A stretch of DNA of 64,000 nucleotides from Haloprofundus halophilus (GTDB lineage: Archaea; Halobacteriota; Halobacteria; Halobacteriales; Haloferacaceae), in assembly GCF_003439925.1 (NCBI RefSeq), contig NZ_QQRR01000001.1:992001-1056000 (forward strand), written 5' to 3'. The position numbers and the translations under genes are program-made. The notes under the pieces are model-generated. The model did no database searches. It saw only the letters and a list, made by a program, of their open reading frames with translations, and was not told where the DNA came from. This document shows positions 41,401 to 55,770 of the stretch, one piece after another (positions within the stretch are counted from its first letter, which is position 1; every line of letters starts with the position of its first letter).

Positions 41401-42303
41401 ATGAACAACCGACGAGAGACGATAGACGAAGCGAAGCGCGTCGCCCGTACGCTGTTCGACGAGGAACTGACCGAGTCGTCCGGCGGCGATTCGAACGCGG
41501 AGTCGGAGCCGTTCGACGTCGAACGGTTCCTCCGAACGCTCGCAGGGCAGGACACAGAACAGAGTCGCGAGCGACGGACGGGGAAACAACTGGTCGCGGG
41601 TTCGCTCGTCGCCCTCGGCGTGCTCCGTCGACTGGCCAGAGACGAACGAGTAGAGCGGTTGCTGGCGGAGACGAGCGTCACGGAACGGGAAACCGAAGCG
41701 GAACCGACGCCCGAGGAGTCGTCCGAGTCGCGGTCGGTCGTCGGGACGCTCCTGCGACTGCTCGCGTTCGCGGTGGTCGTCGCCGTCGTCGCCTACGCCG
41801 TGCGAAAACGCCGTGCAGGGGGCGACTCCGAACCCGACGCGACCGAACGCGACATCACGGAGACGAACGTCGCCGAGGAGGACGTGATGGGAGCGAGCGC
41901 CGCCGAGGAAGCGGACGTCGACGAGATGGTCGACGCCGTCGAGGACGACGAGGGCGACATCTCGCCCGAACCCGGCGAGACGGTCGTCGAAGACGACGTC
42001 GTCGAGGCGGCGACGAACGAGGACGAAAGCGAGGGCGAGGACGAAATCGGAGACGACGACGAAAGCGAGGGCGAGGACGAAAGCGAGGGCGAGGACGAAA
42101 TCGGAGACGACGACGAAAGCGAAGACGAAGGTGAGCACGGCGACCAGACCGCCGGTGAGGCTGCACTGGAGACGGAAGAGTCGGACGACGAGACCGAGAC
42201 CGAGGGCGAGGAGAGCGACTCCGAGTCAGATTCGGGCGGTACCGAGGGCGAGTCGCCGCTCGAAGGAGACGGGGAAGCGACGAACGAGTCGCCCAACCAG
42301 TGA
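41401..42303 (+). CDS. Acidic single-helix membrane protein with D/E/S/G repeats
   Basis: A 300-residue protein of unknown function. A hydrophilic N-terminal half, which contains one weak hydrophobic stretch (about 63-76), precedes a clear membrane helix (L-L-R-L-L-A-F-A-V-V-V-A-V-V-A-Y-A). About 160 residues of extremely acidic tail follow. The tail contains repeated E-S-E-G-E-D-E-I-G-D-D-D units. The helix is followed by R-K-R-R, so the acidic part is probably cytoplasmic. The ATG at 41401 directly follows a GTG at 41398. No partner genes are evident. Confidence 0.68.
   Translation: MNNRRETIDEAKRVARTLFDEELTESSGGDSNAESEPFDVERFLRTLAGQDTEQSRERRTGKQLVAGSLVALGVLRRLARDERVERLLAETSVTERETEAEPTPEESSESRSVVGTLLRLLAFAVVVAVVAYAVRKRRAGGDSEPDATERDITETNVAEEDVMGASAAEEADVDEMVDAVEDDEGDISPEPGETVVEDDVVEAATNEDESEGEDEIGDDDESEGEDESEGEDEIGDDDESEDEGEHGDQTAGEAALETEESDDETETEGEESDSESDSGGTEGESPLEGDGEATNESPNQ
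42022..42129 (+). repeat. Acidic coding repeats (gacgaaagcgagggcgag units)
   Basis: 18-bp and longer units (gacgaaagcgagggcgag, then gacgaaatcggagacgac) recur four to five times in frame. They encode the D-E-S-E-G-E / D-E-I-G-D-D stretches of the acidic membrane protein. Confidence 0.6.
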
Positions 42304-46975: not shown

Positions 46976-47446
46976 ATGTCGCGGGAACTCGACGACCTCG
47001 ACCGCTACATCATCTACGCGCTTCAGGGCGACGCCCGCGGGACGACCGCCCGAGAGATCGCCGAGATGAAGGGGGTCTCCGCCAGCACCGTACGCAACCG
47101 AATCCGCCGACTCGAAGAGGGAGAGATCGTTCGGGGGAGCCACCTCGACATCGACTTCGAGGCCGCCGGGTACCAACTGTACACGCTCATTCTCTGTACC
47201 GCCCCGATTCCGAAGCGCGAGCAACTCGCGCGCGAAGCGTGCGACGTCGACGGCGTCGTCTCGGTCCGCGAGATAATGACCGGCGACGAGAACGTCCACA
47301 TCACCGTCGTCGGCGAGGACAGCGACGACCTGAGCCGAATCGGTCGCGACCTGAGTTCGCTCGGCTTCGAGATCGTCGAAGAGGAACTCATCCGCAACGA
47401 GTACACCTGCCCGTACACGCCGTTCAACGAAACTACGGACGAGTAG
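46976..47446 (+). CDS. Lrp/AsnC-family transcriptional regulator
   Basis: A 156-residue regulator: an N-terminal helix-turn-helix (D-L-D-R-Y-I-I-Y-A-L-Q-G-D-A-R through V-S-A-S-T-V-R-N-R-I-R-R-L) and a C-terminal RAM-like effector domain with V-S-V-R-E-I-M-T-G-D-E-N-V-H. The ATG at 46976 starts at the family-typical position; upstream residues are not protein-like. It is divergent from aspS across a 131-bp shared promoter region. It is followed by the 20-bp tandem array. Confidence 0.9.
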   Translation: MSRELDDLDRYIIYALQGDARGTTAREIAEMKGVSASTVRNRIRRLEEGEIVRGSHLDIDFEAAGYQLYTLILCTAPIPKREQLAREACDVDGVVSVREIMTGDENVHITVVGEDSDDLSRIGRDLSSLGFEIVEEELIRNEYTCPYTPFNETTDE

Positions 47447-47562
47447 TCGCGTTCTTCGGTTCGGTATGCCTCTCCGCGGAGCGACGGCTCCGGCGCTTCG
47501 ATCCGCCGCCTCTCGGAGTGCCGCCGGATGCGCTCGCCGACGTCGCGACGAGAGACGGTTGC
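47447..47562. other. Start of the gap between lrp and the antiporter
   Basis: GC-rich non-coding sequence between the regulator stop and the tandem array. The whole gap runs to 47994 (548 bp). It also contains the array (47563-47697), an AT-rich promoter-like stretch (about 47728-47780) and a doubtful short reading frame (47836-47994). Confidence 0.5.
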
Positions 47563-47697
47563 GGACGCGTTCACGTCTTTACGGACGCGTTCACGTCTTT
47601 ACGGACGCGTTCACGTCTTTACGGACGCGTTCACGTCTTTACGGACGCGTTCACGTCTTTACGGACGCGTTCACGTCTTTACGGACGCGTTCACGTT
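47563..47697 (+). repeat. 20-bp tandem array, six full copies plus one partial
   Basis: The unit ggacgcgttcacgtctttac repeats head to tail six times without a mismatch, then a seventh copy breaks off after 15 bases. There are no spacers, so it is not CRISPR. The 20-bp period is not divisible by three, so it is not a coding repeat, although no stop codon occurs in any plus frame. Each unit has an imperfect dyad (gacg-cgttca-cgtc) and a TATA-like tcttta. It lies between the Lrp gene and the CPA2 antiporter. Confidence 0.95.
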
Positions 47698-47835
47698 TCG
47701 ACGACCGACAGACCGAACGATGCGTCGCTTAGATTGGAGTATCTTCAATTGTGTAATAAATACTATAACGAATAGTAGATGCGAAATCAGCAAAATATCG
47801 CCTTCTTTATGCCGTTTCAGGAGCAAGAACCGGAT

Positions 47836-47994
47836 ATGAGAGTTCCCGCACGGCAGTCGAGCGACGAAACGTCGAAGGTGGGCGGACGGGCGCGGATTCA
47901 CCTGGCCGAAGGTCAGTGCCGAGGCCCGGGTCGTCTCGGGCCGCGCCGGGTTCCGCACGCGGACGCGGAGAACCGCGTCTCGGAGGTGAACTGA
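47836..47994 (+). CDS. Doubtful 52-codon ORF abutting the antiporter gene
   Basis: An ATG at 47836 lies about 24 nt after a TATA-like ttctttatg and opens a 52-codon frame whose TGA directly abuts the antiporter GTG at 47995. The protein is rich in Arg and short of Asp/Glu, unlike this proteome, and has no known domain. It may instead be a 5' leader of the antiporter mRNA. Confidence 0.2.
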   Translation: MRVPARQSSDETSKVGGRARIHLAEGQCRGPGRLGPRRVPHADAENRVSEVN

Positions 47995-49239
47995 GTGGTC
48001 GAAGCGTCCGAGATCAACATCCTCGGCCTCCTGTTGGTTCTGGCCGTCGCGTGGGTGTTCGGTGCGCTCGCGGAGCGGTTCGGCTATCCCGCGATGATGG
48101 GTGAGCTGTCGGCGGGGCTCCTCTTCGGTCCGCCGATACTGGGGATCATCCAACCCTCGGAGGTGTTGGCGGTGCTGTCGGAACTCGGCGTCTTCCTCCT
48201 GATGGTGTACGTCGGCACCGAAGTCGACCTCCACAAACTGTTCGAGCTCGGGCCGCAGGCGCTTCTCATCGCCGTCGGCGGTTTCGTCATCCCGTTCGGC
48301 CTCGGCTACGCGGCCGGCGTCGTCCTCGGGGTGTCGGTGGGAGCGGCGCTGTTTCTCGGACTGGCGATGGCGGCGACCTCGCTGGCGACGAAGTCGCGCA
48401 TCCTCTCCGACCTCGACCTGCTCGACACCCGCATCGCGGGGGTGCTTCTGGGCGGCGCACTCGTCTCCGACGTGGGCGTGCTCGTCGCGTTCGCGGGCAT
48501 CATCGGCTTCGTCGAGGCCGGGTCGGTCGACCCGCTGAGCATCGCCGTCATCCTCGGCAAGGCGCTGGCGTTCTTCGCCGTGACGCTGTTCATCGGCGAC
48601 CGCTTCCTCCCGCCGATGTGGACGAAACTCGAAGCGCTCCGCGAGCAGTACGGCTTCGTCGACAAGACGACGGCGTTCACGTTCGCGCTACTCGTCGCGC
48701 TGGTGTTCGCCGAACTCGCCGCGCTGGCGGGCCTCCACATGATCATCGGCGGCTTCATGGCCGGGATGTTCCTCCGGCAGGCCGACATCACGCCGGGGCT
48801 GTACGAGCACATGGAGAACGTCATCTACGACCTCGCTATCGGCTTCTTCGCGCCCATCTTCTTCGTCACCGTCGCCTTCGAGTTGACGTTCGACGTGTTC
48901 ACGCAGAACCTCGGACTGCTCGTGCTGCTGGTCGCCATCGCGTTCGTCGGGAAGATCGTGGGCTCGTGGCTGTTCTCGCTGCCGACGAAGCTCACCTCCC
49001 GCGAGGGGCTGGTCATCGGCTTCGGGATGAACGGCCGCGGCACCGTCGAGATAATCATCGCCTCCATCGGCCTGTCGGCGGGCATCATCGACCAGCAGAT
49101 GTTCTCCATCCTCGTCTTCATCGCCATCTTCACGACGGCGCTCGTTCCCGTGACGATGACGTGGGGCGTCAAACTCCTGGAGTCGGCGGGCGAACTCGTC
49201 CGACTCGACGAGGACGAGACGGCCAGCACGGCGGACTGA
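47995..49239 (+). CDS. CPA2-family cation:proton antiporter
   Basis: A 414-residue membrane protein with about 12 helices. It shows the CPA2 (KefB/NapA-like) pattern: F-G-Y-P-A-M-M-G-E-L-S-A-G-L-L-F-G-P-P in helix 2, A-M-A-A-T-S-L-A-T-K, G-G-F-M-A-G-M-F-L and G-F-G-M-N-G-R-G-T-V-E near the end. It exchanges Na+ or K+ for protons; no RCK/TrkA-N domain is attached. The start is GTG at 47995, since the next ATG would remove helix 1. The upstream region holds the 20-bp array and an AT-rich promoter. Confidence 0.9.
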   Translation: MVEASEINILGLLLVLAVAWVFGALAERFGYPAMMGELSAGLLFGPPILGIIQPSEVLAVLSELGVFLLMVYVGTEVDLHKLFELGPQALLIAVGGFVIPFGLGYAAGVVLGVSVGAALFLGLAMAATSLATKSRILSDLDLLDTRIAGVLLGGALVSDVGVLVAFAGIIGFVEAGSVDPLSIAVILGKALAFFAVTLFIGDRFLPPMWTKLEALREQYGFVDKTTAFTFALLVALVFAELAALAGLHMIIGGFMAGMFLRQADITPGLYEHMENVIYDLAIGFFAPIFFVTVAFELTFDVFTQNLGLLVLLVAIAFVGKIVGSWLFSLPTKLTSREGLVIGFGMNGRGTVEIIIASIGLSAGIIDQQMFSILVFIAIFTTALVPVTMTWGVKLLESAGELVRLDEDETASTAD

Positions 49240-55602: not shown

Positions 55603-55650
55603 GCTTGCACAGTGGCCGCGGGTCGGATAAGGATTCAGCATCCGGCGAGG

Positions 55651-55770
55651 GGTTGCCGCGAGTGCGGTGGCGACAGTGGTTGTCGCGAGGCAGTGGCGAC
55701 GGTGGTTGCCGCGAGTGCGGTGGCGACGGTGGTTGCCGCGAGTGCGGTGGCGACGGCGGTCGCCGCGACC
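55651..55770. repeat. 27-bp minisatellite, about four copies
   Basis: Units of ggttgccgcgagtgcggtgg plus cgacggt recur at 55651, 55678 (26 bp, diverged), 55704 and 55731, with a partial copy from 55758. They lie between the divergent peptidase and MATE genes, in the region expected to hold their promoters. The repeat is open in one plus frame (nine-codon periodicity), but that frame lies upstream of the supported MATE start. Confidence 0.85.

What the first reader, a model, noticed from the sequence alone, without database searches (positions are those of the whole stretch)
47563..47697. Perfect 20-bp tandem array between an Lrp regulator and a cation antiporter
Six identical head-to-tail copies plus a 15-bp partial copy, with no spacers and no mismatches. 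A 20-bp period places each unit about two helical turns apart, on nearly the same DNA face. Each unit has an imperfect dyad and a TATA-like tcttta. Perfect copy identity means recent expansion or active homogenisation. It could be a protein-binding array controlling the antiporter, a set of stacked promoter-like elements, or a phase-variable minisatellite.
Basis: partly seen in the sequence, partly recalled or inferred. Interest (0 to 1): 0.62.

Follow-up and report, generated by a model that had tools for sequence, protein, structure and literature searches.

The report
Species-specific 20-bp intergenic minisatellite
In a salt-loving archaeon a 20-letter stretch of DNA has been copied head-to-tail almost seven times in the gap between two genes; sister species lack this unit and the same genome carries several unrelated arrays like it, so it is most likely ordinary recent copying noise, not a control element.

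Summary
The array is real. The unit occurs nowhere else in its own genome and has no exact match in the GTDB or viral contig collections. The closest relative with the same gene pair (G003; antiporter 96% identical, Lrp 94%) has the same gap without the array. A second relative (G001) has an unrelated 20-bp repeat of 2.8 copies there. The conserved DNA of the gap lies downstream: an AT-rich block, a TATA-like box and a short leader ORF (47755-47994). Sampling showed several unrelated intergenic arrays with 10-28-bp units in this genome (about 20 satellites per Mb, including a 23-bp x 6.5 array), and such arrays appear and vanish between sister species. The unit's dyad is no better than chance. 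Best reading: a recently expanded, probably neutral intergenic minisatellite. Strain-to-strain copy-number variation and any effect on the antiporter could not be tested.

The parts
47562..47696 (.). 20-bp tandem array, 6.75 perfect copies of CGGACGCGTTCACGTCTTTA
   Evidence: TRF: 100% match, score 270; exact periodicity check
46976..47446 (+). Lrp/AsnC-type transcription regulator gene upstream of the array
   Evidence: Pfam PF13404 HTH_AsnC-type E 1.1e-11; 87-94% identical orthologs in G001-G004
47755..47835 (+). Conserved AT-rich promoter region of the antiporter operon with TATA-like TTTATG at 47806; this, not the array, is the conserved non-coding DNA of the gap
   Evidence: Alignment with G003 and G001; positions; promoter role inferred
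47836..47994 (+). Short leader ORF (52 aa) ending directly at the antiporter GTG (TGA|GTG, stop-start coupling)
   Evidence: Frame and coupling kept in G003 and G001, a coupled short ORF also in G004; no Pfam match
47995..49239 (+). Na+/H+-exchanger-family antiporter gene
   Evidence: PF00999 E 1.5e-58; orthologs 93-96% identical in G001, G003, G004

Best explanation
It is a lineage-specific intergenic minisatellite. A roughly 15-20-bp segment of the spacer after the Lrp gene was duplicated in tandem in this species, then expanded to about seven copies by slipped-strand replication or unequal recombination. This happened recently enough, or with enough homogenisation, that the copies are still identical. 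It sits about 110 bp upstream of the TATA-like box of the antiporter operon, outside the conserved promoter block, and most likely has no dedicated function. Shown here: sequence, perfection, uniqueness of the unit, absence in the sister gap, and several comparable unrelated arrays in the sampled genome and in a sister species, with turnover between species. Inferred: the slippage/recombination mechanism, recency and neutrality.
For: Perfect 6.75 copies. The unit is found only in this array in its own genome with up to 3 mismatches, with no exact copy in genome contigs or viral contigs. In G003 the Lrp-antiporter gap has no array, and the G000 gap aligns better once the array is collapsed (score 431-435 against 387). 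In G001 the gap holds a 20-bp x 2.8 array whose unit matches ours only at chance level (10 of 20, P about 0.5-0.6). Surveyed G000 sequence holds several further non-coding arrays, e.g. 23 bp x 6.5 at 97%, 27 bp x 3.6 and 28 bp x 2.9, plus a perfect 20 bp x 2.8 array of uncertain coding status. Satellites by a SATFIND-like rule are about 23 per Mb in G000, 15 in G003 and 2.5 in G001, and TRF finds none in Markov-3 resampled sequence. At two further loci the G000 array is absent in sister species; at another the gap carries different arrays in different species; at a fourth the array is shared with altered unit structure. Archaeal PolB and PolD slip in vitro on a template with a hairpin and short direct repeats (PMC4134008).
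Against: A 20-bp repeat also occurs at the corresponding position in G001, the only intergenic array in 400 kb sampled from that genome. By the sampled density a coincidence has a chance of roughly 0.5-3% (my estimate), so some bias of this site towards tandem duplication, or some function, is not excluded. The density figures rest on a sample of 864 kb with a crude gene caller. No within-species copy-number data are available.
Confidence: 0.82

Rival explanations
1. A regulator-binding array: stacked 20-bp (two helical turns) sites bound cooperatively by the adjacent Lrp-type protein or another regulator, controlling the antiporter operon.
For: Period close to two helical turns; location next to an Lrp gene; an Lrp-antiporter neighbourhood recurs in G001, G003, Haladaptatus and YIM A00010; a 20-bp repeat also lies in the G001 gap.
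Against: The unit is absent from the G003 and G001 gaps: best matches 12 and 13 of 20 against a random mean of 13.3, although Lrp is 91-94% identical with a nearly unchanged HTH. The G001 unit is unrelated. The unit's dyad is at chance level. The conserved DNA of the gap is a separate block from 47755.
Confidence: 0.07
2. A phase-variable or copy-number-tuned element: changes in repeat number alter expression of the antiporter or stability of the Lrp 3' end.
For: Perfect copies are prone to copy-number change; the array as RNA folds better than shuffles (z -3.7).
Against: The array is about 110 bp upstream of the TATA-like box with no conserved element upstream of it whose spacing could matter. 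A folding gain is expected of many tandem repeats with a local hairpin. G003 and G001 do without this array.
Confidence: 0.06
3. Stacked promoter-like elements (each tcttta acting as a TATA box).
For: Each unit has TCTTTA, resembling the likely genuine box CTTCTTTATG at 47806.
Against: No start codon of a conserved gene follows at the right distance; only 5-6 A/T-rich bases per unit; not conserved in sister species. ORFs across the array are arginine-rich repeats, unlike acidic haloarchaeal proteins.
Confidence: 0.03
4. Assembly artefact in copy number.
For: Tandem repeats are a known source of assembly error (general knowledge).
Against: At 135 bp the array is short enough to be crossed by single reads; the assembly is 6 contigs and 99% complete. 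Raw reads were not available.
Confidence: 0.02

Closest known systems
Prokaryotic satellites / minisatellites (VNTR-type tandem repeats; survey PMC6749651)
   Same: Head-to-tail units of 10-260 nt repeated at least 4 times, species-specific, short arrays; meets a rule modelled on the survey's own criterion.
   Different: The survey found Halobacteria dominated by repeats of a length that is a multiple of three inside genes; this one is intergenic with a 20-bp period, and the sampled density in this genome (about 20 per Mb) is above the 5-9 per Mb listed for Halorubrum lacusprofundi and Natrialba magadii.
STAR elements of staphylococci (intergenic direct repeats, PMC3532100)
   Same: Intergenic direct repeats, variable between species (abstract).
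   Different: STAR elements are one interspersed repeat family at many loci; here each locus has its own unrelated unit and this unit occurs at one site only.
Repeat-bounded indels in Haloquadratum walsbyi (PMC3119063)
   Same: Short direct repeats of about 4-20 bp underlying indels in a haloarchaeon.
   Different: Those are pairs of repeats bounding deletions, not multi-copy tandem arrays.

Membership tests
Intergenic minisatellite | Head-to-tail copies of a unit of roughly 10-60 bp | tested here: met
   20 bp x 6.75, 100%
Intergenic minisatellite | Outside coding sequence | tested here: met
   Between Lrp stop (47446) and leader ORF/antiporter; period not a multiple of three; overlapping ORFs are arginine-rich repeats
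Intergenic minisatellite | Lineage-specific presence with orthologous flanks | tested here: met
   Absent in G003; unrelated unit in G001
Intergenic minisatellite (VNTR) | Copy number varies among strains | not testable with these tools
   One genome per species held; no reads
Regulator-binding array (Lrp or other) | Unit conserved near orthologous regulator and target | tested here: not met
   No better-than-random match in G003 or G001 gaps
Regulator-binding array (Lrp or other) | Unit has dyad symmetry beyond chance | tested here: not met
   45% of shuffled units score as well
Regulator-binding array (Lrp or other) | Specific protein binding | not testable with these tools
   Needs EMSA or ChIP
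CRISPR array | Repeats separated by unique spacers | tested here: not met
   Copies abut with no spacer
Dispersed repeat family (STAR-like) | Same unit at many loci | tested here: not met
   All matches with up to 3 mismatches lie in this one array

The most novel reading that the evidence does not exclude
The spacer between this Lrp gene and the antiporter is a site where 20-bp, helically phased repeats arise repeatedly with different sequences (G000 and G001), because spacing rather than sequence matters, e.g. for DNA bending or cooperative Lrp wrapping upstream of the antiporter promoter.
Probability: 0.05. Interest if true: 0.6.

Novelty: new member of a known kind. Interest (0 to 1): 0.17.

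Why it matters
For this locus, little: it is a likely neutral repeat that could serve as a strain-typing marker. The wider point is modest but real. Two species of this haloarchaeal genus seem rich in unrelated intergenic repeats with units mostly of about 15-30 bp that appear and vanish between close relatives. That would make the genus a handle on how minisatellites are born in archaea.

Tried and rejected
Exact unit search in 85k genomes and in viral contigs: no match. Rfam scan of the region: nothing above threshold. Bacterial promoter/terminator scan: nothing found, and it does not model archaeal promoters. Homology between the G000 and G001 units: rejected, chance level. Residual 20-bp periodicity in G003: none stood out among lags 10-40, and TRF found no 20-bp repeat there. 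A 21-bp x 2.1 repeat (79%) upstream of the antiporter in YIM A00010 was considered as support for a phased array and judged too weak. Literature searches for haloarchaeal VNTRs and archaeal phase variation returned nothing specific. The secondary structure of the array as RNA or DNA is somewhat better than shuffles, but this is not specific evidence of function.

Full report
Observation. The sequence at 47562-47696 is a perfect period-20 run of 135 bp, six full copies of CGGACGCGTTCACGTCTTTA plus 15 bp. The run is far beyond chance. It starts 115 bp after the stop codon of an AsnC/Lrp-type regulator (46976-47446) and ends 298 bp before the GTG of a Na_H_Exchanger-family antiporter (47995-49239).

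Anatomy of the gap. Aligning the gap with the same gap in G003 and G001 shows one strongly conserved non-coding part, from about 47755 to the ATG at 47836. It includes AATAAATACTATAACGAAT, a TATA-like TTTATG at 47806, and the ATG about 30 bp further on, the usual geometry of a leaderless haloarchaeal transcript (geometry from general knowledge; alignment; positions). From that ATG a 52-aa ORF runs to a TGA directly abutting the antiporter GTG. The frame and this coupling are kept in G003 (52 aa) and G001 (51 aa), and a short ORF overlapping the antiporter start is present in G004. The array lies upstream of all of this.

Comparison with relatives. The unit is found in this genome only in this array, allowing three mismatches. 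It has no exact match in the genome and viral contig collections, and a search with the array and its flanks brought up no counterpart of the array in 59 related genomes. G003 is the closest relative with the same gene pair: antiporter 96%, Lrp 94%. It has a gap about 126 bp shorter and no tandem repeat there. Collapsing the array in G000 raises the alignment score from 387 to 431-435, and the right edge of the array falls in DNA shared with G003, CACGT(T/G)TCGACGACCGACAG. G001 has a 20-bp x 2.8 repeat in the same gap, but its unit matches ours no better than shuffled or random genomic 20-mers. G002 has Lrp but no match to the antiporter, and in G004 the two genes are about 2.9 kb apart with a second antiporter-like gene between them.

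How special is it in this genome? I surveyed 264 kb of G000 (window plus ten 20-kb samples), 400 kb of G001 and 200 kb of G003 with TRF (at least 2.5 copies, 90% match, period 10 or more) and a crude gene caller. G000 gave about eight arrays that are wholly or mostly non-coding, among them 23 bp x 6.5 at 97% with the same TRF score (270) as this one. G003 gave five; G001 gave one, the array in the Lrp-antiporter gap. TRF found no array of this kind in Markov-3 resampled G000 sequence. With a SATFIND-like rule, modelled on a published survey of prokaryotic satellites (PMC6749651), the densities are about 23, 15 and 2.5 per Mb for G000, G003 and G001. The survey lists 5-9 per Mb for two Halobacteria. 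At the loci of two other G000 arrays (23-bp and 20-bp) the sister species lack the array. At the 27-bp locus, G000, G001, G002 and G003 each have a different short repeat. At the 20-bp array of G003, G000 has a related array with a 38-bp higher-order unit. The array is therefore one of many, at loci that turn over between species.

Mechanism. The most economical account is tandem duplication of spacer DNA followed by expansion through replication slippage or unequal recombination. Slippage by archaeal replicative polymerases on a hairpin template with short direct repeats is documented in vitro (PMC4134008). Whether haloarchaeal polyploidy and gene conversion keep copies identical is inference. 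Nothing tested favours a binding array: the unit is not conserved next to near-identical Lrp proteins, the dyad is at chance level, and the conserved block lies elsewhere.

Residual doubt. The coincidence of two different 20-bp repeats in the same gap in G000 and G001 is unlikely at the 0.5-3% level by my density estimate, and two helical turns is a suggestive period. The same pattern of repeated, unrelated arrays in one gap was seen at another locus (the 27-bp locus), so I attribute it to a generally high rate of such duplications in spacers, but I cannot exclude a role for spacing.

Verdict. Observation confirmed; regulatory interpretation not supported; most likely an ordinary lineage-specific minisatellite. 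Interest low.

Noticed in passing
47836-47994: A 52-aa leader ORF is stop-start coupled (TGA|GTG) to the antiporter; frame and coupling are kept in G003 and G001 and a coupled short ORF is present in G004, suggesting translational coupling or a small protein.
   Followed up: partly
L058:9150-9298, L052:10357-10452, L060:14488-14543 (G000); L082, L084:9252-9334, L090:14833-14904 (G003): Several unrelated, mostly intergenic arrays with 17-28-bp units in two species of the genus, far fewer in G001; sites and units change between species.
   Followed up: partly
L038 and L043, between about 1800 and 2500: In two Haladaptatus genomes an Lrp paralog (59%) and the antiporter flank a gene that reads like a TrkA-N-type NAD-binding protein (read by eye, not searched), suggesting a recurring Lrp-TrkA-antiporter module; G002 appears to keep a similar gene near Lrp without the antiporter.
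   Followed up: partly
55644-55768: A 27/53-bp imperfect tandem repeat (4.7 copies, 88%) between a peptidase-like gene on the minus strand and a MATE-like transporter gene on the plus strand, likely another intergenic minisatellite.
   Followed up: no
42018-42122: Perfect 54-bp duplication (1.9 copies, 18-bp sub-period) with a length in multiples of three, probably coding.
   Followed up: no
L030:2180-3450 and L024:1-1290 (G004): In G004 a second antiporter-like gene, apparently with a universal-stress-like C-terminal part (read by eye), lies between Lrp and the antiporter.
   Followed up: no
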